Origin: JAUXIQ01 sp030620925 [NCBI: Nitrospinota bacterium]
GTDB taxonomy: Bacteria > JAUXIQ01
NCBI GenBank assembly: GCA_030620925.1
Contig: JAUXIQ010000051.1
Location: forward strand, 1-9,275
Direction: 5' to 3'
Length of the DNA stretch: 9,275 nucleotides
Shown here one piece after another: positions 1-9,275 of this stretch. The notes below the pieces were generated by a model. The model had not been told where the DNA came from and did not search any database. It saw nothing but the letters and a program-made list of their open reading frames with translations. Both the position numbers and the translations under genes were made by a program. Position 1 is the stretch's first letter. Each line of letters opens with the position of its first letter.

Positions 1-2283
1 GACGGCAGGGTGGTAAAAATAGAAGGCAATCCCATGCACCCCATCAACGAAGGAACCATCTGTATGAAGGGGCACGCGGGCCTTCAGCTACTTTATCACC
101 CGGAACGCATTAAGGGACCACTTAAAAGAGCAGGCGAGAAAGGGGCAGGTCAGTGGGAACCCATAGAATGGGAAGAAGCCATCCAGATGGTAGCCGAAAA
201 CCTGACCAGCCTGAGGGAAAAGAAGCAATCGCATACCGTCGCCGTTCTGGGAGGCGATTATAGGGGTCTTCGCCATCATCTCTGGGATCGTTTCACAAAG
301 GCTTACGGTACACCCAACTATATCCGTCTACGAAATTCGCGTATGGAGGAGAGCGCCCTTACCCATGAGCTGATGCAGGGCGTCTCCAAGCCTCTTGGGT
401 ACGACTTCTTCAATGCTCGCCTGGTGCTTTCCTTTGGCTGCAACTGGTTGGAAACCTGGAATTCGCCGGTATATCAATTCCGCGCCTACGGACACCTCAG
501 GGAAGGAATAGAAGGCCACAAACCGAAGATTTTCCAAGTGGATTCCAGATATTCGGTTACCGCCGCCAAGGCGGACCAGTGGATACCCATCAATCCCGGC
601 AAGGATGCCGTGCTGGCTATGGGTTTAGCACATGTCATCATTAAAGAGAGCCTTTACGATCAAAGTTTCGTAGAGAAGCATTGCTTCGGTTTTAAAGATT
701 GGCAGGATAGCTCCGGGGAACGCCACACGGGATATAAGTCTACAGTTTTGAAAGATTACGACCCGTTGACTGTTGCCAGGATCACCGGCGTCCCCCCAAG
801 AATTATCTTCAACCTTGCCAGAGAGCTGGCAAAAACGAAGCCCGCCCTCGTCCTGGGGGAGAAGGCTACCTCCTTCGGAAGTGGGGATATTTACACTCGT
901 ATGGCTATACACAGCCTCAATGCATTGACCGGAAACATTGGAGATTCCGGAGTGCTGACCGTTCAGGGAGGGGTTCCGCTGAGTGGATTGAAACCGCTTC
1001 CTAAAGACCCCGTCAGCCAACAGTCGCTCTCTAAACCGCGTATCGACGAGGCTGGGAAGGGGCGATTCTTTATGACCGACAACATCGCTCTCAACCTGCC
1101 CCGAAATATTTCTAAAAAGAACCCCTACCCTTTAAATTTGCTGTTTCTCTTCCGTTCCAACCCTGTCCATAGCGCTCCGAATGGAGAAGCCTTCGCCAAA
1201 GCCCTGACGAAGATACCTCTTGTGGTAAGTTTTTCCTCTTTCATGGATGAAAGCACGCAATACGCCGATCTCATCCTGCCGGACCAGTTTTCTCTAGAGC
1301 GCTGGCAGGACGACATTGTCACCCATCTCTCAGGGTTCAGCCTTTTCAGCATCGGCAGGCCGGTAGTCCCCCCCGTGGTAAATTCCAGGAACGCCATGGA
1401 AGTATTGTTCGATATTGCCCACAGGCTGGACGATAAAATTTCAGCAGCTTTCCCGTGGAATAAATACGAAGACCTTCTTCGTGAAAGCTGCTCAGGCCTA
1501 TTCAACGCCGGTCGTGGATACATCGTCTCATCCCCCCGTGAAGAGGCTTTCCGTAAGGTACTGGAAAGACAGGGCTATCGAATTCCTGAACACAAATCTT
1601 TTGCCGGTTTCTGGGAGGGGTTGATGATGGCTGGAGCCTGGTGGGACCCCTCGGACTCTTACAGAGGAGTCAGAGATTTATTGGGCGGCCCCAACAGGAC
1701 GTTCGATTTTTATTCCAGAAGTTTGAAGGAGAAAATCGAGGGACAGGCTCGCAAGATTGCCCGGGGAGCTGCGATATCGCCTGAGGAGGCGCAGACCAGC
1801 CTCACGAAAATAATGAATCTTAAGGGGAGCGGAGACCTTATTTTCCTCCCCCATGATGAATCGGACGAACGCGACAGCAACGAGAAATACCCATTTTATC
1901 TCAACGCCTACAATTTACATTCACTGACCGATGGAAGCGGAGCAAATCAACCCTGGCTTCAGGAAAACCTGGCCATCCACGCCGATGGTAACTGGGGCAG
2001 TTGGGCGGAGATCAACCCTCATACAGCAGAGGAATTGGGAATCGGAGACGGGGATTGGATTTGGTTGGAATCCCCAAGAGGCAAAATTAAAGTTCGAGCT
2101 AAATTATATGTGGGGGCCATGCCCGAGGTGGTTAATGTTCCACTGGGGCAAGGCCATACCGCTTACGGCCGCTGGGCGGAAGGTCGCGGCTCTAACGCCA
2201 ACCAGATCCTGACGGATGACCTGGATTCGTTAACCGGCCTGCCCCTGGCCAATCAGACCAGGATTAATATTCGTAAGGCATAG
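1..2283 (+). CDS. Molybdopterin oxidoreductase-type large subunit (Qrc/ACIII-like), 5' partial
   Basis: The reading frame is open from the first base, so the gene starts upstream; 760 residues are visible. Numbered from the first codon, C21 in GTICMKG fits the fourth cysteine of the N-terminal [4Fe-4S] site of this superfamily; the other three, and any Tat signal, lie outside the window. Residues about 30 to 610 form the molybdopterin oxidoreductase core, including the GCNWLE strand (144-152). Residues about 630 to 760 are the dinucleotide-binding C-terminal domain, with a GQGHTAYGRWAEGRG stretch (about 715-730) resembling alternative complex III ActB and Qrc QrcB proteins. The segment GTPN...NSRM (103-115) has Met115 roughly where Psr/Phs-type enzymes carry the metal-binding Cys, so molybdenum binding is uncertain. 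The gene precedes iron-sulfur and NrfD genes, which fits a membrane-anchored respiratory complex. The substrate is unknown; a separate Psr- or Ttr-like reductase is the main alternative. Confidence 0.9.
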   Translation, partial: DGRVVKIEGNPMHPINEGTICMKGHAGLQLLYHPERIKGPLKRAGEKGAGQWEPIEWEEAIQMVAENLTSLREKKQSHTVAVLGGDYRGLRHHLWDRFTKAYGTPNYIRLRNSRMEESALTHELMQGVSKPLGYDFFNARLVLSFGCNWLETWNSPVYQFRAYGHLREGIEGHKPKIFQVDSRYSVTAAKADQWIPINPGKDAVLAMGLAHVIIKESLYDQSFVEKHCFGFKDWQDSSGERHTGYKSTVLKDYDPLTVARITGVPPRIIFNLARELAKTKPALVLGEKATSFGSGDIYTRMAIHSLNALTGNIGDSGVLTVQGGVPLSGLKPLPKDPVSQQSLSKPRIDEAGKGRFFMTDNIALNLPRNISKKNPYPLNLLFLFRSNPVHSAPNGEAFAKALTKIPLVVSFSSFMDESTQYADLILPDQFSLERWQDDIVTHLSGFSLFSIGRPVVPPVVNSRNAMEVLFDIAHRLDDKISAAFPWNKYEDLLRESCSGLFNAGRGYIVSSPREEAFRKVLERQGYRIPEHKSFAGFWEGLMMAGAWWDPSDSYRGVRDLLGGPNRTFDFYSRSLKEKIEGQARKIARGAAISPEEAQTSLTKIMNLKGSGDLIFLPHDESDERDSNEKYPFYLNAYNLHSLTDGSGANQPWLQENLAIHADGNWGSWAEINPHTAEELGIGDGDWIWLESPRGKIKVRAKLYVGAMPEVVNVPLGQGHTAYGRWAEGRGSNANQILTDDLDSLTGLPLANQTRINIRKA

Positions 2284-2296
2284 AAAGGGAGCAAAG

Positions 2297-2992
2297 ATGC
2301 CTAGATGGGGAATGGCGATTGACCTAAATAAATGTACGGCATGCCAGGCGTGCGTCATAGCATGTAAAGCCGAGAACAACATCCCTTTCGTGGGGCCCGA
2401 GGAAACGGCCAAAGGGCGCGATATAACGTGGATGGAGCTGATTTCTGTGCATGAGGGACACTACCCGGATGCGAAAATAAAGTTCTTCCCTCGCCCCTGT
2501 TTTCACTGCGACAAACCTCCATGCACAAAGGTCTGCCCCGTGCATGCCACATATAAGAACCCTGAGGGGTTGGTTGCACAAATCTTTCAGCGGTGCATAG
2601 GCTGTCGCTTCTGTATGGCGGCATGTCCCTACACGGTCAAATATTTTAACTGGTACAAGTATGACATCCCTGATGAGATGAAGAACCATTACAATCCGGA
2701 TGTTTTCGTGAGGCCCGCGGGGGTCGTAGAGAAGTGCACCATGTGCCATCATCGTCTGCAGAAGGCCAGAGATAAAGCTCGTGTGGAAGGGAGGAGCTTA
2801 AAACCGGGAGAATATATACCCGCATGCGCCGAGACTTGCCCCAGTAATGCAATCATTTTCGGCGACCTGGATAATTCCAGCAGTGAGGTGGCAAGACTCT
2901 CCAGGAGCTCCCGGGCTTTCCGCCTGCATGAAGAGCTGGGAACTGAACCAAAGGTATTCTATCTGACCGAAGAGGACCGACATGTCATTTGA
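2297..2992 (+). CDS. Four-cluster [4Fe-4S] ferredoxin-type electron-transfer subunit
   Basis: A 231-residue protein of the NrfC/PsrB/QrcC type. It has 16 cysteines in four sets: C13/16/19/23, C68/71/76/80, C100/103/106/110 and C147/150/177/181. This is enough for four complete [4Fe-4S] clusters, and no set has lost a ligand. In known complexes of this kind the subunit passes electrons between the large molybdopterin-type subunit and the NrfD membrane protein. There is no signal peptide (it begins MPRWGMAID), so if the complex is periplasmic the subunit would travel with a Tat-exported partner, as known for DmsB-like proteins. Start ATG 2297 has an AAAGGGAG Shine-Dalgarno at 2284-2291 and lies 13 bp after the large-subunit stop, so the genes are surely co-transcribed. 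The 3' end overlaps the NrfD gene by 11 bp. Confidence 0.95.
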   Translation: MPRWGMAIDLNKCTACQACVIACKAENNIPFVGPEETAKGRDITWMELISVHEGHYPDAKIKFFPRPCFHCDKPPCTKVCPVHATYKNPEGLVAQIFQRCIGCRFCMAACPYTVKYFNWYKYDIPDEMKNHYNPDVFVRPAGVVEKCTMCHHRLQKARDKARVEGRSLKPGEYIPACAETCPSNAIIFGDLDNSSSEVARLSRSSRAFRLHEELGTEPKVFYLTEEDRHVI

Positions 2993-4310
2993 AAACAAGT
3001 GGGGACAAGATGAGCGTTTATTCGAGCCCATTGAAAAGACGGGGTGGGGCTTCCGTGCAACGGTCGCCATTCTGCTGGTTCTCGTCGCCTGGGGTGCCAC
3101 ATCCTATTTCAGACAGGTGAAATATGGACTGGGAGTTACAGGCATGGCGGAGCCCGTATCCTGGGGGCTGTACATAACCAACTTCGTATTCTTCATCGGG
3201 ATAAGCCATGCGGGTACCCTCATATCCGCCATACTGCGCCTCAGTCAGGCCGAGTGGCGACGCCCTATCACTCGCATGGCGGAGGTTATCACTGTCGCCG
3301 TCCTCTTTATCGGGGCTGGTTATGTATTGATAGACCTGGGCCGCCCCGATCGCATGTTAAACGTCCTCCTTTACGGCCGCTATCAATCGCCGCTACTCTG
3401 GGATGCCACCAGCATTTCCGCTTACCTGACGGCGAGTACCATCTATCTGTATCTCCCCCTTATCCCTGATATAGCTATATTGAGGGATCGGGCCAGAAAG
3501 TGGAACTTCATATTTCGCATCCTGTCCTTAGGCTGGCAGGGTACAGCAAAGCAGCAAAAAGTCCTCAATCGGGCCATCGCCATCATGGCGGTGCTGGTCA
3601 TACCCATCGCCGTATCGGTCCACACAGTGGTCTCCTTTGTGTTCTCCATGACGTTGCAGCCCGGTTGGCACAGCACCATCTTCGGACCCTACTTCGTCGT
3701 GGGAGCCATATTCTCAGGTATCGCCGTGCTGATAATTGTTATGGTCGTCTTCCGTAAGGCTTTCAGGCTTGAAGCCTACCTCAAAGAAATACATTTCAGC
3801 AATCTGGGGCTTCTGTTACTGGTCATGTCATTGCTATGGTTCTACTTCACTTTTGCCGAATACCTGACGGGTTTCTACGGCCACGAACCGGAGGAAATGA
3901 GCGTATTCTGGGATAAATTCAGAGGCCAATATGCTCCCCACTTCTGGGCCATGGTCACCTTTAACTTTGTGCTGCCTATAATTATTCTCGGTAACCGCAG
4001 AACCAGAACCATACTGGGTACTCTCATTGCCTCTATAACCATCTCTATCGGAATGTGGATGGAGCGTTTCCTGATAATCGTGCCCACTCTTATGAATCCA
4101 CGACTGGAGTATTCCCGGGGGTTTTACTTCCCGACTCTTACTGAGTGGAGCATCACCATCGCCGGCTTCGCTCTCTTCTTACTGTTCTACGTGGTGTTTA
4201 CCAAGTTTTTCCCCATTATTTCCGCCTGGGAGGTGAAAGAAGGGAGGGAGGAAGGCCTGGAAGAAGTTGATCATAGAGTTCGAAGTTATCTCCCTGACTA
4301 CGGGAATTGA
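2982..4310 (+). CDS. nrfD: NrfD/PsrC-family quinone-interacting membrane subunit (ActC/QrcD-like)
   Basis: A 442-residue polytopic protein with about ten hydrophobic helices, near residues 25-42, 60-86, 98-118, 141-161, 198-222, 234-257, 273-296, 319-336, 342-366 and 389-411. The segment around 60-86 (WGLYITNFVFFIGISHAGT) and the WHSTIFGPYFVVGAIFSG stretch (229-246) look like ActC of alternative complex III and related NrfD proteins. Ten helices favour the ActC/QrcD branch over the eight-helix PsrC. Family members bind quinone near the membrane surface and exchange electrons with the iron-sulfur subunit. H76 and H230 are visible conserved-looking polar residues within or next to membrane segments. 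Start ATG 2982 lies inside the previous gene with AGAGGA at 2971-2976, which suggests translational coupling. The charged C-terminal tail (416-442) is short. The gene symbol names the family, not a proven nitrite-reductase role. Confidence 0.93.
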   Translation: MSFENKWGQDERLFEPIEKTGWGFRATVAILLVLVAWGATSYFRQVKYGLGVTGMAEPVSWGLYITNFVFFIGISHAGTLISAILRLSQAEWRRPITRMAEVITVAVLFIGAGYVLIDLGRPDRMLNVLLYGRYQSPLLWDATSISAYLTASTIYLYLPLIPDIAILRDRARKWNFIFRILSLGWQGTAKQQKVLNRAIAIMAVLVIPIAVSVHTVVSFVFSMTLQPGWHSTIFGPYFVVGAIFSGIAVLIIVMVVFRKAFRLEAYLKEIHFSNLGLLLLVMSLLWFYFTFAEYLTGFYGHEPEEMSVFWDKFRGQYAPHFWAMVTFNFVLPIIILGNRRTRTILGTLIASITISIGMWMERFLIIVPTLMNPRLEYSRGFYFPTLTEWSITIAGFALFLLFYVVFTKFFPIISAWEVKEGREEGLEEVDHRVRSYLPDYGN

Positions 4311-4697: not shown

Positions 4698-5921
4698 ATG
4701 GTTCAAAAGATTTGCCGCAAGATGCTGGTTGTGGTAACCATAATGATTTTGTTCGCTTCCATACAATCGTTGGCCAGCGCTCAAATCTCAGAGTATCAGC
4801 GAAATCCGCTCAGCGGCAGCCAGGTTTTTTTTCAAAAAGGATGCGCCGGTTGCCATTCCATACTCGATGTGGGGGGAAATATAGGGCCGGACCTGGGCAA
4901 AGTGGAGTTGAACTATAGTTTTTTCGGCGTTGCCTCCATAATGTGGAACCATGCCCCGAATATGCTGAACAAATTCGAGGCATTGGATATCTCCTTTCCC
5001 GAGTTATCTTCAGAGGAGATGAATGCGCTGATTACCTTCCTTTCCTATCTTAACTATATGGAACGGCCAAGCGATCCTGAGCGAGGAAGAGAACTCTTTA
5101 CCCAGAAGAAATGTGTACGTTGCCACTCGGTGGGAGGAATAGGCGGTAACGTAGGCCCCGCCCTGGACCGATTCCGCCCCTATCAATCGCCAGTCTTTAT
5201 TACCACCGCTTTTTGGAACAAGGCGCAAAAAATGGCTGAGTCCATGCTGGAGATGGGTATAAAACGGCCGGTGTTCGAAGGTAATGAGATAATGGACATT
5301 ATGGCTTTCATCCGCGAGAACGCAGAGGTTGCCAGAGGAGACTACCGGAGGATTTATACACAACCGGGGGACCCCAAAGCGGGCGAAGCTCTCTTGGCGA
5401 AAAAGCGCTGTACGCACTGTCACAATATCAACGGAGAGGAAAAAGGAATCGGCCCCGACCTGGGGAAATCGGACTTGCGCATCAGTTTCACAAAGATTGC
5501 GGGCAGGATGTGGAATCATGGCCCTAAAATGTGGAGAGCCATGTCAAAAGAAAATATACCCGTTCCTAAATTTTCAGAAACAGAGATGTCCGACGTGCTG
5601 TCTTACATATATTTCGCCGCCATACAGGAAAGGGGCGATAACCCTTTAAATGGAGAACTCCTTATATTCGAGAAAGGTTGTAACAGTTGCCATCCGATCG
5701 CCGGGAAAGGAGGCGACGCTGATTTGGCGCCGGATTTGGCCGAAATTTCCTCAGAACTGGAACTCAACACGCCAACAAAGGTCATCACCGAGATGTGGAA
5801 CCACATCCAGTCTATGGGCCTGAGCGTAGAAGAAGTGGGTATGGCATGGCCCACCATAGATTCAAGGGAAATGGCTGATATTACTTCCTATATAGTGAGA
5901 CTTGCAAAGCCAAAGCCTTGA
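4698..5921 (+). CDS. Exported tetraheme cytochrome c of four tandem class I-like domains (paralogue 1)
   Basis: A 407-residue protein with a Sec-type signal peptide (hydrophobic 9-27, probable cleavage after ASA at 26-28). Four covalent heme sites are CAGCH 49-53, CVRCH 139-143, CTHCH 238-242 and CNSCH 328-332, each in a domain of about 90 to 99 residues. Each domain carries a WN(H/K)xxxM motif: Met89, 179, 278 and 373. Domain 2 has Lys175 where the others have His. Domains 1 and 3 resemble each other more than they resemble 2 and 4, giving an ABAB order. The likely role is periplasmic electron transfer with the upstream quinone-linked complex. I chose ATG 4698, with GAGG at 4689-4692, over an in-frame ATG at 4662 that would add 12 residues ahead of the signal peptide and has no good ribosome site. 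A paralogue lies at 6847-8058. Confidence 0.92.
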   Translation: MVQKICRKMLVVVTIMILFASIQSLASAQISEYQRNPLSGSQVFFQKGCAGCHSILDVGGNIGPDLGKVELNYSFFGVASIMWNHAPNMLNKFEALDISFPELSSEEMNALITFLSYLNYMERPSDPERGRELFTQKKCVRCHSVGGIGGNVGPALDRFRPYQSPVFITTAFWNKAQKMAESMLEMGIKRPVFEGNEIMDIMAFIRENAEVARGDYRRIYTQPGDPKAGEALLAKKRCTHCHNINGEEKGIGPDLGKSDLRISFTKIAGRMWNHGPKMWRAMSKENIPVPKFSETEMSDVLSYIYFAAIQERGDNPLNGELLIFEKGCNSCHPIAGKGGDADLAPDLAEISSELELNTPTKVITEMWNHIQSMGLSVEEVGMAWPTIDSREMADITSYIVRLAKPKP

Positions 5922-5944
5922 TGTAGCTTTAGAGGACGGAATTA

Positions 5945-6505
5945 ATGGTACTCAGAACCTTAGGAGGGAGGCAAAACCGAGTGAAAAATTCTACAATTAT
6001 TTTGATGCTAGCTGTCGCTGCGATATTCGCCTTATCAGCGGGCCCTTTTGCAGGTTCGGGAGATGCGGCAGAGTATGTTGGCATAGCGAAATGCAAGATG
6101 TGTCACAACAGCAAGGCAGTGGGAGGAGAGCAGTATAAGGTATGGGAAAAGTCGAGACACGCCAATGCTTTGAATACCCTTAAGAAAGAAGGCGAATCCG
6201 AAAATCCCAAATGTATAAAGTGCCATACCACCGGTTATGGAAAGCCCGCCGCGGCTGGAGCAAACCTCGCTAATGTGCAGTGCGAAGCCTGCCATGGTCC
6301 GGGAAGCGCTTATAAGTCTATGAAAATAATGAGTAAAAAAGCTTTCAAGGAGGACCACGCGGCGGCACGCAAGAAAGCAAAGGAAGCGGGGCTGGTCATA
6401 CCTCCCACAGAGGACGTGTGCCGGGGATGCCACAACGAAGAAAGCCCTAAGATTAAAGGCTTCGATTTTGCCGCTTACAAAGAGAAGATCAAACATTGGA
6501 AATAA
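5945..6505 (+). CDS. Tetraheme cytochrome c554-type protein, exported
   Basis: A 186-residue protein with four heme sites: CKMCH 50-54, CIKCH 90-94, CEACH 113-117 and CRGCH 159-163. The pattern YVGxxxCxxCH, then WEKSRHANAL, CHTTGYG and VQCEACHGPGS is typical of the cytochrome c554 / cytochrome c-prime multiheme family. The protein is small for that family and has no extra C-terminal domain. The N-terminus has a signal peptide ending near DAA (40-42). Two starts are credible: ATG 5945 with AGAGGA at 5931-5936, and GTG 5981 with a strong GGGAGG at 5966-5971, which gives a more usual signal peptide beginning KNSTIILML (174 residues). The gene follows the first tandem cytochrome by 23 bp and so shares its operon. 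Electron transfer is inferred; an enzymatic role, as in hydroxylamine-oxidising systems, cannot be claimed. Confidence 0.92.
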   Translation: MVLRTLGGRQNRVKNSTIILMLAVAAIFALSAGPFAGSGDAAEYVGIAKCKMCHNSKAVGGEQYKVWEKSRHANALNTLKKEGESENPKCIKCHTTGYGKPAAAGANLANVQCEACHGPGSAYKSMKIMSKKAFKEDHAAARKKAKEAGLVIPPTEDVCRGCHNEESPKIKGFDFAAYKEKIKHWK

Positions 6506-6638
6506 TCATGATTTGATACTCTATAACCCTCTGGACGCATAAGGGCTGGTATAGCAAACGGATGAAGCGTTGCTTTGAAAAGATGGTCCAGGCAAGATTT
6601 CTGAGAATATTTTATAAAAAGTATTAGAAAGATCCAGG

Positions 6639-6732
6639 GGCCTCCGTACCGCTTTTGTATGGTACCCTGCCCCCTCGAAGGCCTCGGCTGGTTTTCGAGG
6701 AAGAAAAGATGCCATGAGTATGTGCGGAGGCC
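6639..6732 (+). ncRNA. Candidate branched structured RNA (leader or repeat element)
   Basis: An outer stem of eight perfect pairs, GGCCTCCG 6639-6646 with CGGAGGCC 6725-6732, encloses two hairpins. The first is TACC 6647-6650 with GGTA 6661-6664. The second is an 11 bp stem, 6673-6683 with 6690-6700, which includes two G-U pairs and closes on TCGGCT. A purine-rich single strand, GAAGAAAAGATGCCATGAG, follows at about 6699-6717. This is a three-way junction layout, as seen in many riboswitches and in folded intergenic repeats. It does not match a riboswitch class that I can recognise. The strand is assigned because the next gene downstream is on +; the inverted repeats alone do not decide it. 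Confidence 0.4.
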
Positions 6733-6788
6733 GGTTTAATTAAGGAGGCTCATCGAAGCATATAAAAGGTGCCCTTCTCACTGTATAA

Positions 6789-6820
6789 GGCTGTAAAGGA
6801 GAACAGCCAACTAATTAGTT
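6789..6820 (+). promoter_or_regulatory. Hairpin and adjoining 12 bp palindrome before the cytochrome gene
   Basis: GGCTGT 6789-6794 pairs with ACAGCC 6803-6808 around the loop AAAGGAGA, and is followed directly by the perfect palindrome AACTAATTAGTT at 6809-6820. They lie 26 to 58 bp before the start at 6847. The palindrome could be a protein-binding operator. No regulator is identified, and neither element is a proven signal. Confidence 0.3.
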
Positions 6821-6846
6821 AATCACTCAAGGAAGGGGACAATAAG

Positions 6847-8058
6847 ATGCTTAAACGAAAACTTCTTATAGTCGGTTTGTTCATTTTATTAGCCTTCCCT
6901 ACTATCCCCCGCTCCATTCTGGCCCAGGAAATCACTCTCCCCGAAAACCCATTGATGGGAAGAATGCTTTTCTACCAGAAGGGATGTCTCGGGTGCCATT
7001 CCGTGCGCGGGGAAGGAGGTAATGTGGGTCCTGACCTGAGTAATAAGGGCCATAACAGGAGTGTTACTCAAATGGTAGGGACCATGTGGAACCATTTCCC
7101 CAAGATGTACCAGAAGATGAGTCAGGAGGGTATCCCCTTTCCCCGCTTTACGACCGAAGAAATGGCTGAATTGCTCGCCTATATTTATTTTGCAGGTTAT
7201 TTCGATAAACCGGCTACTACCGCTGACAGGCTCAAAGGGATGACACTTTTTAGCGAGAAAGGCTGTAAGAAATGCCACTCTCTGGATGGTGCCGGAGGCG
7301 ACGTCGGGCCCGACTTGACGGCGTGGGACAGATTCGCTTCACCAGTTCTCTGGGCTCAATTAATGTGGAATCATGGGTCCACAATGAGAGACAAAATGAT
7401 AACAAAAAATATTCCCTGGCCCAAATTCGAGGGTAATGAGATGAGGGATCTCGTTGCTTACATATATAGGGCCAACTGGCCTCCAAAGCAGGATGTTTCT
7501 TACTCGCTGCCCGGAAACCCGGCCGAAGGGAAGAGGCTTTTTAATGAGAAAAAATGCGTTCAATGCCACTCAATTTTCGGCACAGGCGGAAAGATCGGCC
7601 CATCACTGACCGATAAGCGCTACGACAGGACAGTCACTCAACTAATAGGAATAATGTGGAACCATGCCCCAGGTATGTTCGAGAAAATGGAACTGGCAGG
7701 CATCCAAAGACCACAGTTCTCAGGCGGAGAAATGTCGGACATCGTGTCATTCCTCTTCTTCCTGGGCTATTTTGATCGTCCCGGCAGTGCGGATAATGGG
7801 AGAAGGCTTTTCTTCGTCAAAAAATGTGCCCTGTGCCATGGATTGCGAGGAGAAGGGGGAAAATTGGGGCCTAACCTGACCAAATACAGTAATATAGAGC
7901 AGCCTCTACAACCGGTCCATATCGCTCAGGCCATGTGGAACCATGCTCCACTCATGGCCGAAATTATGAAAGCAAGAAACATTGCCTGGCCCCGGCTGGA
8001 AGAAAACGATGTGAACGATCTCATGGCATTTATTAGAGGGACAGGCAGCAATAACTAA
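6847..8058 (+). CDS. Exported tetraheme cytochrome c of four tandem class I-like domains (paralogue 2)
   Basis: A 403-residue protein with a Sec-type signal peptide (KRK at 3-5, hydrophobic 6-20, probable cleavage near ILA 24-26). Heme sites are CLGCH 47-51, CKKCH 140-144, CVQCH 237-241 and CALCH 327-331. All four domains keep MWNHxxxM (Met87, 180, 277, 370), followed by an IP/IQ/IA-x-P-x-F/L stretch and a helix ending in AYIY or similar. Domain 1 matches 3 (RSVTQ/RTVTQ, GYFDKP/GYFDRP) and 2 matches 4, giving ABAB. The architecture equals that of the cytochrome at 4698-5921, so the two arose by duplication. Start ATG 6847 follows AAGGAAGGGG at 6829-6838. A 341 bp gap with inverted repeats separates it from the upstream cytochrome, so it may have its own control. 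It is the last + strand gene before the convergent tRNA. Confidence 0.93.
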   Translation: MLKRKLLIVGLFILLAFPTIPRSILAQEITLPENPLMGRMLFYQKGCLGCHSVRGEGGNVGPDLSNKGHNRSVTQMVGTMWNHFPKMYQKMSQEGIPFPRFTTEEMAELLAYIYFAGYFDKPATTADRLKGMTLFSEKGCKKCHSLDGAGGDVGPDLTAWDRFASPVLWAQLMWNHGSTMRDKMITKNIPWPKFEGNEMRDLVAYIYRANWPPKQDVSYSLPGNPAEGKRLFNEKKCVQCHSIFGTGGKIGPSLTDKRYDRTVTQLIGIMWNHAPGMFEKMELAGIQRPQFSGGEMSDIVSFLFFLGYFDRPGSADNGRRLFFVKKCALCHGLRGEGGKLGPNLTKYSNIEQPLQPVHIAQAMWNHAPLMAEIMKARNIAWPRLEENDVNDLMAFIRGTGSNN

Positions 8059-8120: not shown

Positions 8121-8149
8121 CCCGCCAAGTGGAAGGTTTTATTGGCGGG
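8121..8149. repeat. GC-rich inverted repeat at the convergent gene end, overlapping the tRNA 3' end
   Basis: CCCGCCAA at 8121-8128 is perfectly complementary to TTGGCGGG at 8142-8149, with a 13-base loop. On the + strand it lies 63 bp after the cytochrome stop and could slow or end transcription, although there is no following T-run. On the - strand the inner arm is the acceptor 3' end of tRNA-Asp, so the tRNA trailer could compete with the acceptor stem before processing. I see no classic intrinsic terminator elsewhere between 8059 and 8142. Confidence 0.4.
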
Positions 8150-8219
8150 GCTGACGAGACTTGAACTCGCGACCTCCGGCTTGACAGACCGGCGTTCTAA
8201 CCAACTGAACTACAGCCCC
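8143..8219 (-). tRNA. tRNA-Asp (anticodon GUC), CCA encoded
   Basis: The - strand folds as a full cloverleaf of 77 bases. The acceptor stem is GGGGCTG with CAGCCCC, and the D arm is GTTC/GAAC. The anticodon stem is CCGGT/GCCGG with loop CTGTCAA, which places GUC (the complement of 8183-8185) at positions 34-36. The T arm is GCGAG/CTCGT with loop TTCAAGT. Discriminator G and an encoded CCA follow at 8143-8146. It reads aspartate codons GAC and GAU. It lies downstream of proS on the same strand, with 186 bp between them. Confidence 0.97.
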
Positions 8220-8405: not shown

Positions 8406-9275
8406 TCAGGTTTCCGTGTAACTCTTCAGAGCAGCATCTATTTCCCTTTCGAGCACTTTCGGTGCCTGTTCGATTTCCACCAGGGTGACGGAGCCGTCGC
8501 TTCTACTGCGCAATTCGACTTTGTTTTGTGCCAGGTTTTTGGAGCCCACTGTCAGGCGAAAGGGTATCCCTAAAAGGTCTGCATCTTTGAATTTTACACC
8601 TGCTCTTTCGTCGCGGTCATCTATGATTGCTTCCAGCCCGGCTTTTATGCAAGCTGAATAAATATCTTCGGCTGCGCTGAGCACTTCTTCGTCCTTCATG
8701 TTGACGGGCAGAATATAAACATGGTAGGGAGCGATGGGCATGGGCCAGATTATTCCATCTTCGTCATGGTTCTGTTCAATTGCTGCCGCCATCGACCTTC
8801 CCACACCGATACCGTAGCAGCCCATAATGATTAATTTCTCCTCACCCTGGGCATCCTGAAAGGTGGCTTTGAGCGCCTGGCTGTATTTGGTGCCCAGCTT
8901 GAAAACGTGCCCCACTTCTATTCCTTTTTCGATGGTCAGTGTGGAGCCGCATCTGGGGCAGGGGTCATCCGCCTCTAATAACCTTAAATCCTGAAAGTCG
9001 TGAACCTCGAAGTCTCTGCCGATATTGACGCTCAGGAGATGGTAGTCATTTTCGTTCGCGCCGGTTACGAAATTGGCCAGCCCTTTTACAGCTAAGTCGG
9101 CGATTATTTTTATTCCCTCAAGTCCCACCGGACCGGAGAAACCCTCGGGCCCCTCCGTGATCTTCTGTATGGCTGCGCTGTCGGCCATCTTCAACTCCTG
9201 TGCGCCGGAGAAATTCAAGAGCTTGGCCTCGTTGACCATATGATCTCCTCGCACCAGCACCGCAAGGGGGGTATC
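8406..9275 (-). CDS. proS: Prolyl-tRNA synthetase, C-terminal part (5' end outside window)
   Basis: The frame stays open to the window edge; 289 residues are visible, beginning DTPLAVLVRGDHMVNEAKL. That is inside the insertion (editing) domain of bacterial-type ProS, so the true start lies beyond 9275. A GTG at 9260 is not the start because the preceding codons also match the family. Numbered from the first visible residue, the rest of the insertion domain runs to about 95, a CPRCG pair follows at 106-110, and class II motif 3 is GIGVGR at 155-160. The anticodon-binding domain begins near APYHVYILPVN (about 177) and ends at the stop at 8406-8408. The enzyme charges tRNA-Pro with proline in the cytoplasm. 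It is a housekeeping gene convergent with, and unrelated to, the cytochrome operon. Confidence 0.98.
   Translation of the reverse strand, partial: DTPLAVLVRGDHMVNEAKLLNFSGAQELKMADSAAIQKITEGPEGFSGPVGLEGIKIIADLAVKGLANFVTGANENDYHLLSVNIGRDFEVHDFQDLRLLEADDPCPRCGSTLTIEKGIEVGHVFKLGTKYSQALKATFQDAQGEEKLIIMGCYGIGVGRSMAAAIEQNHDEDGIIWPMPIAPYHVYILPVNMKDEEVLSAAEDIYSACIKAGLEAIIDDRDERAGVKFKDADLLGIPFRLTVGSKNLAQNKVELRSRSDGSVTLVEIEQAPKVLEREIDAALKSYTET

What the first reader, a model, noticed from the sequence alone, without database searches (positions are those of the whole stretch)
4698..8058. Two paralogous ABAB tetraheme cytochromes with a shared WN(H/K)xxxM motif
Seen: all eight heme domains carry WN(H/K)xxxM. 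The Met lies 36 residues after the heme His in six domains, and 41 and 39 in the two fourth domains. At the position where class I cytochromes usually show the axial Met (the MPPF-like stretch) these domains have Ile (for example IPFP, IPWP) or a related residue. Inferred: the invariant Met of this motif, or its neighbouring His, is the sixth heme ligand, and a diheme AB unit was duplicated before the whole gene was.
Basis: partly seen in the sequence, partly recalled or inferred. Interest (0 to 1): 0.6.

Follow-up and report, generated by a model that had tools for sequence, protein, structure and literature searches.

The report
Paired four-heme cytochromes, unusual heme motif
Two related proteins that each carry four hemes in an alternating ABAB pattern are encoded beside a membrane complex that exchanges electrons with quinones; they belong to a barely described family, found in several phyla, that seems to hold its heme iron with a methionine (or histidine) on a helix and not at the usual place.

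Summary
In detail: T1 (4698-5921) and T2 (6847-8058) each have four class I type heme domains, all eight with WN(H/K)xxxM, at the stated spacings. One correction: the usual axial-Met site is Ile in seven domains but Met in T1 domain 4. ABAB is well supported: in a 264-domain tree the A/B label needs 2 changes, shuffled mean 88. The ligand inference is undecided: of 264 domains, Trp is kept in 261, Met in 247, His in 246, and the usual site is Met in 18. AlphaFold2 models put the motif inside a long helix; no coordinates were available to place hemes. The genes follow QrcB-, QrcC- and NrfD-like genes; of 40 relatives' loci, 31 hold at least one such gene and 25 all of QrcA, B, C and NrfD. Best reading: periplasmic tetraheme electron carriers of a Qrc/ACIII-like quinone complex. 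A 2022 paper mentions a four-heme ActE-like protein beside an ACIII-like cluster (passages); eight text searches showed me no description of the motif. New variant of a known kind.

The parts
10..2283 (+). QrcB-like molybdopterin-family subunit, 5' end missing (the window is a whole contig that starts inside the gene; the GTG at 10 is only the first start codon seen)
   Evidence: PF00384, PF01568; QrcB model 304 bits, cut-off 440; window = contig C139 1-9275; five full-length relatives carry about 70 more N-terminal residues with an RR signal; the Cys of ArrA that I recall as its Mo ligand aligns with Arg
2297..2992 (+). QrcC-like 4Fe-4S subunit
   Evidence: QrcC model 297 bits (cut-off 400); Fer4 domains
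2982..4310 (+). NrfD-family quinone-interacting membrane subunit
   Evidence: PF03916 E 1e-36; DsrP 136 and QrcD 37 bits, both below cut-off
4698..5921 (+). T1: tetraheme cytochrome, class I type domains A1-B1-A2-B2
   Evidence: AlphaFold2 model pLDDT 85.4
4944..4964 (+). T1 domain 1 motif WNHAPNM
5214..5234 (+). T1 domain 2 motif WNKAQKM
5511..5531 (+). T1 domain 3 motif WNHGPKM
5796..5816 (+). T1 domain 4 motif WNHIQSM (spacing 41; this domain also has Met at the usual site)
5945..6505 (+). Cytochrome c554-like protein with four CxxCH, between T1 and T2
   Evidence: PF13435 E 8.9e-15
6847..8058 (+). T2: tetraheme cytochrome, class I type domains A1-B1-A2-B2
   Evidence: AlphaFold2 model pLDDT 84.6
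7087..7107 (+). T2 domain 1 motif WNHFPKM
7366..7386 (+). T2 domain 2 motif WNHGSTM
7657..7677 (+). T2 domain 3 motif WNHAPGM
7936..7956 (+). T2 domain 4 motif WNHAPLM (spacing 39)

Best explanation
T1 and T2 are exported periplasmic tetraheme cytochromes (N-terminal hydrophobic signal-like stretch, and c-type hemes), each a chain of four class I type domains in ABAB order, made by doubling of an AB diheme unit before the family spread among phyla (supported by trees). They serve a Qrc/ACIII-like quinone complex (QrcA-like multiheme, QrcB-like, QrcC-like, NrfD) as its electron exit or relay: electrons pass between quinone at the NrfD subunit, the iron-sulfur subunit, the complex's cytochrome and the tetraheme chains, and on to a partner not encoded in the window (inferred from gene order). 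I lean to the quinol-oxidising direction, as in ACIII; the opposite, as in Qrc, is open. In most domains the sixth heme ligand is the Met of WNHxxxM, presented from the middle of a long helix that replaces the usual Met loop (inferred; about 0.55 on its own), with the His one helix turn before it on the same face. Shown: domain count, motif, ABAB order, gene neighbourhood, long helix in both predicted models. Inferred: ligand, partners, direction.
For: Motif and spacing. Conservation over 264 profile-retrieved domains: W 261, H 246, M 247, usual site Met only 18. MP dipeptide 26-75 residues after the heme His in 8 of 264 family domains against 13 of 21 control class-I-like domains in the held DNA. 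In all seven domains where the His is replaced by Ala, Arg, Gln or Asn (3, 2, 1, 1) the Met is kept. AlphaFold2 models of T2 and T1 (pLDDT 84.6 and 85.4) put the motif inside one helix of 21 or 22 residues in seven of eight domains, and in a helix with a one-residue break in T1 domain 4. Class I type: PF00034; structural matches to c-550 (Z 7.5, 3.4 A, 77 aligned), NorC (Z 6.3, 3.3 A, 86), SorU (Z 6.2, 3.1 A, 78). ABAB trees. Gene order: of 40 loci fetched around profile hits, 31 hold at least one of QrcA-, QrcB-, QrcC-like or NrfD, 27 at least three, 25 all four, 36 these or a cytochrome b; median gap NrfD to tetraheme gene 184 b in 24 same-strand cases. The genome has two COX1 matches over the cut-off.
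Against: Met and His of the motif are equally conserved, so the ligand choice rests mostly on plausibility. Seventeen of 264 domains lack the Met (13 of these keep the His); four lack both. No model coordinates were available, so no heme was placed. No QrcA-like gene is visible here: the contig starts inside the QrcB-like gene, and a search of the own genome with one QrcA-like protein found nothing (not informative). Four of 40 profile-retrieved and two of 15 pattern-retrieved loci show none of the neighbour genes searched. Subunit contact is untested. On direction: in a sulfate-reducing acidobacterium NrfD-type genes assigned to qrcABCD were transcribed under anoxic conditions (PMC10564751, passages), which would fit quinone reduction; whether those are genes of this kind was not tested.
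Confidence: 0.6

Rival explanations
1. The His of WNHxxxM, not the Met, is the sixth ligand: bis-His class I type domains, with the Met only covering the heme face. Lys may substitute in WNK domains.
For: His 246 of 264 against Met 247. Thirteen domains keep His without Met, and three more have Lys without Met. Bis-His class I cytochromes exist: MtoD (His47/His95, +155 mV; PMC4412085, passages) also matches the T1 model (Z 6.0, 4.3 A, 82 aligned).
Against: His is replaced by Ala 3, Arg 2, Gln 1, Asn 1, Pro 1 and Lys 6 with Met kept, among them window T1 domain 2. In MtoD the distal His is at +48, near the usual loop position, not +32.
Confidence: 0.25
2. Ligation is mixed: some domains (T1 domain 4 and others with Met at the usual site) use the ordinary loop Met and some hemes are five-coordinate, so the motif is a structural helix signature, not a ligand.
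For: Usual-site Met in 18 of 264 domains, including T1 domain 4. Trp (261 of 264) is more conserved than either candidate ligand. Four domains lack both His and Met.
Against: 246 of 264 domains have no Met at the usual site, and of the 18 that have it 16 keep the motif Met as well. Besides the CxxCH His, the motif His and Met are the most conserved His and Met columns; the next Met columns reach 170, 159 and 155 of 264 and a Lys beside CxxCH 215.
Confidence: 0.15
3. The proteins serve mainly another partner (a cytochrome b complex, or an outer-membrane MtrCAB-like conduit for extracellular electron transfer), and the Qrc/ACIII-like complex is one of several docking partners.
For: Nine of 40 profile-retrieved loci have a cytochrome b gene nearby and five an MtrA/MtrC-like gene. 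In L017 and L018 the tetraheme gene lies downstream of an MtrC-like and an MtrA-like decaheme gene. The own genome has cytochrome b matches on two contigs, each read with one stop inside.
Against: Qrc/NrfD-type genes are the commonest neighbours (31 of 40) and the window has them; no MtrA-like decaheme reached the family cut-off in the own genome, which is fragmented.
Confidence: 0.3

Closest known systems
Alternative complex III (ACIII, ActABCDEF), subunit ActE
   Same: QrcB/ActB-type, iron-sulfur and NrfD-type subunits with periplasmic c cytochromes; ActE carries one His/Met heme at the end of the heme wire (PMC5928083, passages)
   Different: Here the carriers have four heme domains in ABAB order and the WNHxxxM motif; ActE has one heme; the two ActB parts are fused in R. 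marinus; no ActD- or second NrfD-type gene seen in the window
Qrc complex (QrcABCD) of sulfate reducers
   Same: Best named NCBIfam model for the window's QrcB- and QrcC-like proteins and for the pentaheme QrcA-like protein of two relatives; partner of Qrc is a tetraheme cytochrome (PMC13059093, passages)
   Different: All scores are below the family cut-offs (304/440, 297/400, 37/570; relatives' QrcA 122 and 80/180); the Qrc partner is a cytochrome c3, whereas these have class I type domains
Four-heme 'ActE-like protein' in an ACIII-like cluster of candidate phylum MBNT15 (SHF-111)
   Same: The text says cluster 4 has ActABCD and an ActE-like protein with four rather than one heme (PMC9386147, passages); probably the same kind of gene
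   Different: No sequence, motif, domain pattern or ligand is discussed in the passages seen; identity with this family was not tested
MtoD, bis-His class I cytochrome of Sideroxydans
   Same: Class I fold with an unusual sixth ligand; proposed periplasmic shuttle (PMC4412085, passages; match to the T1 model Z 6.0, 4.3 A, 82 aligned)
   Different: One heme; distal His at +48, not in a WNHxxxM helix
Actinobacterial QcrC (diheme c subunit of the bc complex)
   Same: Profile aligns its first domain (GRMPAM) with the WNHGPAM stretch; tandem class I type domains
   Different: Two domains, Met-Pro present, not four; T1 and T2 score 55 and 71 bits against a cut-off of 200
SoxX
   Same: Class I cytochrome; weak structural matches (Z 6.1-6.4)
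   Different: One heme; single window domains score at most 30.6 bits against a cut-off of 61

Membership tests
Class I type cytochrome c domain (Pfam Cytochrom_C) | Sequence match over the curated cut-off | tested here: met
   PF00034: T1 110.4 and T2 117.7 bits, cut-off 21.3, four stretches each
Class I type cytochrome c domain (Pfam Cytochrom_C) | Class I fold | tested here: inconclusive
   AlphaFold2 models match c-550, NorC, SoxX, SorU at Z 5-7.5; Z under 8 is weak by itself
Class I cytochrome c, usual His/Met form | Axial Met in the C-terminal MPxF-like loop (usual, not universal: MtoD has His) | tested here: not met
   Met at that column in 1 of 8 window domains and 18 of 264 family domains
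Qrc complex | QrcB, QrcC, QrcD model scores over the NCBIfam cut-offs | tested here: not met
   304/440, 297/400, 37/570 bits; best-named models for B and C, but below cut-off
Qrc complex | QrcA multiheme subunit encoded with B and C | tested here: inconclusive
   Contig starts inside the QrcB-like gene; QrcA-, B-, C-like and NrfD genes occur together in 25 of 40 relatives' loci
Qrc complex | QrcB without redox cofactor | tested here: inconclusive
   The recalled Mo-ligand Cys aligns with Arg (ArrA) or Met (thiosulfate reductase) in the window, but L004 and L005 have a Cys two columns away and full-length relatives keep a CxxCxGGC motif
Alternative complex III | ActE-like monoheme subunit, ActD and second NrfD (ActF) | tested here: inconclusive
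   The window shows one NrfD and two tetraheme proteins, no monoheme ActE; the contig is cut and ACIII gene content varies (C. abyssi lacks F and G; PMC5317091, passages)
SoxX (TIGR04485) | Single-domain score over the cut-off of 61 | tested here: not met
   Best single domain 30.6 bits; whole proteins pass (70.2, 86.0) only by summing repeats
SoxX (TIGR04485) | Partner SoxA beside it | tested here: inconclusive
   None of the seven window proteins scanned matches a SoxA family; the rest of the genome was not searched for it
c3-type (class III) or NapC/CymA-type tetraheme cytochromes | Match to class III (PF02085) or NapC/NrfH-type models over cut-off | tested here: not met
   No such match listed at E 0.001 for T1 or T2; T1 barely passes the short Paired_CXXCH_1 model (21.2, cut-off 20.6)

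The most novel reading that the evidence does not exclude
A distinct, cross-phylum family of ABAB tetraheme class I type cytochromes whose hemes are ligated from the middle of the third helix (Met, with a His one turn away that could take over), acting as the heme wire of a so far unnamed branch of Qrc/ACIII-like quinone complexes. The paired His and Met in one helix could allow ligand switching with redox state or pH.
Probability: 0.35. Interest if true: 0.65.

Novelty: new variant of a known kind. Interest (0 to 1): 0.5.

Why it matters
If true, class I type cytochromes have a second way to hold their iron, from a helix and not a loop, used by tandem four-heme carriers. It would also name a likely soluble partner of many Qrc/ACIII-like complexes in Acidobacteriota and other phyla, where electron flow to and from quinol is now guessed. 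Both claims are open to ordinary tests with small soluble proteins.

Tried and rejected
Rejected: that T1 and T2 are SoxX. Whole-protein scores pass the model (70.2 and 86.0, cut-off 61) only because four repeats add up; single domains reach at most 30.6 bits.

Rejected: that T1 and T2 come from a recent local duplication; they lie in different parts of a 66-protein tree.

Tried without decision: telling Met from His by which is lost. Table: both 233, Met only 14, His only 13, neither 4 of 264. Lysine-bearing domains do not settle it.

Tried without use: a loose regular expression M[PA]x[FWYL] for the usual Met. It also catches EMADL in the next helix (68 of 264 family domains, 9 of 21 controls), so I used the dipeptide MP (8 of 264, 13 of 21) and the alignment column.

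Tried: solved structures by sequence. In the printed alignments (five at most per call) I saw no chain with WNHxxxM. Foldseek gave one match at E 0.001 or better, a designed cytochrome c555 trimer (9l08); the second looks are weak (best Z 7.5 at 3.4 A over 77 residues for T2; best for T1 Z 6.7 but 15.3 A), and the absence of a family there means nothing.

Tried: own-genome search for a QrcA-like gene, nothing found; not evidence of absence in a genome of 445 contigs.

Tried: literature. Eight text searches, including motif letters (40 papers hold a term, 20 listed, none on cytochromes in the listing). The library holds open-licence papers only. One search gave nothing useful.

Promoter and terminator scan: counts as in shuffles.

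Rows dropped: of 86 profile hits left after removing same-core copies, 66 with exactly four CxxCH were kept; 20 with 2, 3, 5, 8 or 9 were left out, many of them cut pieces of kept genes. So 'four motifs' is a selection, not a finding, in that set. One gene is still in twice (L045 and L007), so counts of 264 hold four repeated domains. The first set of 103 domains came from peptide patterns that contain WNH, so it is biased; I rely on the profile set, whose profile was trained on motif holders. For the 91-domain tree I left out 12 of the 103 (4 of the split L019 gene, 7 monoheme, 1 fragment of L011). The 40 loci are my pick from the hits, not all of them: hits already held, some further copies and most partial hits were not fetched; several genomes gave two or three loci.


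Full report
The observation. Reading the window mechanically and counting motifs confirms the finding at its coordinates. T1 starts at ATG 4698 and T2 at 6847. Each has four CxxCH and four WN[HK]xxxM, with heme His to Met distances of 36, 36, 36, 41 and 36, 36, 36, 39. Both match Pfam Cytochrom_C with four stretches each.

Is it more than chance? A peptide-pattern scan of a collection with one genome per species gave 23 loci, but those patterns contain WNH and are biased. I therefore built a profile (A1, 22 tetraheme proteins) and searched whole genomes: 17 genomes named by handle; 59 relatives, of which 6 matched at E 1e-20, the own genome among them; 297 genomes of the phylum of an acidobacterial locus, of which 22 matched at E 1e-60, the starting genome among them; and 198 of the phylum of locus L007, of which 8 matched, two of them already known to me. 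From all held DNA, 86 hits were left after removing same-core copies, of which 66 have exactly four CxxCH. In their 264 domains Trp is kept in 261, Asn in 236, His in 246 (else Lys 9, Ala 3, Arg 2, four singles) and Met in 247 (else Ile 7, Val 4, two gaps, four singles). The usual Met column is Ile 97, Val 60, Leu 43, Met 18. As a control, 21 other class-I-like CxxCH domains in the held DNA gave MP in 13 and the motif in none; the family gave MP in 8 of 264.

Domain history. A tree of 91 domains has one branch (SH-aLRT 97) with all 46 domains 1 and 3 on one side and all 45 domains 2 and 4 on the other. With 264 domains (FastTree; the program warned of long branches joined, T1 domain 4 among them) the A/B label needs 2 changes (shuffled mean 88), while the two other ways of pairing positions need 15 and 17. 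Plain identities agree only weakly for the B pair: between proteins, domain 1 against 3 is 36% and 2 against 4 is 32%, the latter no higher than 2 against 3. T1 and T2 are not sisters in a 66-protein tree, and in the two-copy loci I checked in it (L004, L006, L007, L008, L010) the copies fall in different clades. So doubling of an AB unit came first and gene-level copies came later or were gained separately.

The ligand. AlphaFold2 models (T2 pLDDT 84.6; T1 85.4) put the motif inside helices 73-94, 166-186, 263-283 and 356-376 of T2, and 75-95, 165-185, 264-284 and 359-380 (one-residue break, at the His) of T1. Four residues separate His and Met, one helix turn, so both face the same side; a Met column one turn further on (159 of 264) continues the stripe. 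The usual loop Met is absent from 246 of 264 domains, so the sixth ligand should come from this helix in most. Which residue is not decided: both present 233, Met only 14, His only 13, neither 4. I favour Met, because all seven domains with Ala, Arg, Gln or Asn in place of His keep the Met. The bis-His rival is real, since MtoD is a bis-His class I cytochrome (PMC4412085, passages), though its distal His lies 48 residues after the heme His. In actinobacterial QcrC the profile aligns GRMPAM with WNHGPAM, which suggests how a Met-Pro ligand could have moved along a helix; this is inference, and which Met binds in QcrC was not found (the search for it gave nothing useful). That helix-borne Met ligands occur in the photosynthetic reaction-centre tetraheme subunit is recalled, not looked up.

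Surroundings. The window is one whole contig and starts inside a QrcB-like gene (304 bits, cut-off 440), followed by QrcC-like (297 of 400) and NrfD-family genes. The Cys of ArrA that I recall as its Mo ligand aligns with Arg here, that of thiosulfate reductase with Met; L004 and L005 have a Cys two columns away, so a Mo enzyme is unlikely but not excluded. Five full-length relatives carry an RR signal, so the subunit is probably periplasmic. A cytochrome c554-like protein with four CxxCH lies between T1 and T2. In relatives the order QrcA-like, QrcB-like, QrcC-like, NrfD, tetraheme recurs. Of 40 loci I fetched around profile hits, 31 hold at least one of these four genes, 27 at least three, 25 all four; 9 hold a cytochrome b; 36 hold either; 5 an MtrA- or MtrC-like gene; 4 none of these; 5 hold two tetraheme genes. 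For 15 pattern-retrieved loci the same numbers, in the same order, are 9, 7, 5, 4, 11, 3, 2 and 7. These counts use bit-score limits set in the script, and some contigs are short.

The genome. It has two COX1 matches over the cut-off, four NrfD matches over the cut-off, cytochrome b on two contigs, each read with one stop inside, and no MtrA-like decaheme over the cut-off. A search of its phylum returned this genome alone. This fits a respiring bacterium in which quinol oxidation feeds periplasmic cytochromes, but the direction is not shown; Qrc runs the other way, and a sulfate-reducing acidobacterium transcribes genes assigned to qrcABCD when oxygen is absent (PMC10564751, passages).

What is known. 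Qrc and ACIII are the closest complexes (PMC13059093, PMC5928083 and PMC8076601, passages). ACIII passes electrons to ActE, a one-heme His/Met cytochrome; Qrc takes them from a tetraheme cytochrome c3. One paper notes an ActE-like protein with four hemes in an ACIII-like cluster of MBNT15 (PMC9386147, passages), probably an earlier sighting. In eight text searches (listings, and passages of nine papers) I saw no account of the motif or of the ABAB family; the library holds open-licence papers only. I rate this a new variant of a known kind.

Noticed in passing
window 4698-5921 and 6847-8058: Whole proteins pass the NCBIfam SoxX model (70.2 and 86.0 bits, cut-off 61) though single domains score at most 30.6; automatic annotation may name these genes soxX wrongly.
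   Followed up: yes
window 5945-6505: Cytochrome c554-like four-CxxCH protein between T1 and T2; similar genes lie in 9 of 55 relatives' loci, in L107, L111, L112 and L119 next to the tetraheme gene.
   Followed up: partly
L020-L026: One-heme relatives with MWNHAPGM in Rhodospirillales and other Proteobacteria, without QrcB-, QrcC- or NrfD-like genes in the held DNA; 7 of 7 keep W, N, H and M, but they were found with a pattern that contains this stretch.
   Followed up: partly
third domains, for example of the tetraheme genes in L010, L092 and L093: Lys replaces the motif His in 8 of 66 third domains; in three of these the Met is also lost (WNKGxxV), so these hemes may have Lys or another ligand.
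   Followed up: partly
L017 5070-11026 and L018 4643-11125: Tetraheme gene downstream of MtrC-like and MtrA-like decaheme genes and, in L017, a 619-aa ORF without family match: a likely outer-membrane electron conduit.
   Followed up: partly
L005 13075-13710, L133 16202-16852, L134 8507-9157, L137 10283-10930: A second QrcC-like iron-sulfur gene (150-160 bits) near the tetraheme operon.
   Followed up: no
window 8143-8219 and 8406-9260, minus strand: tRNA-Asp and a truncated class II aminoacyl-tRNA synthetase gene with an editing domain (prolyl type, judged from its domains) converge on the operon.
   Followed up: no
G000 contigs C157 and C402: Cytochrome b matches beside weak multiheme matches, and a weak tetraheme-profile match on C402 3886-4296: possibly further quinol complexes with c-type partners.
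   Followed up: no
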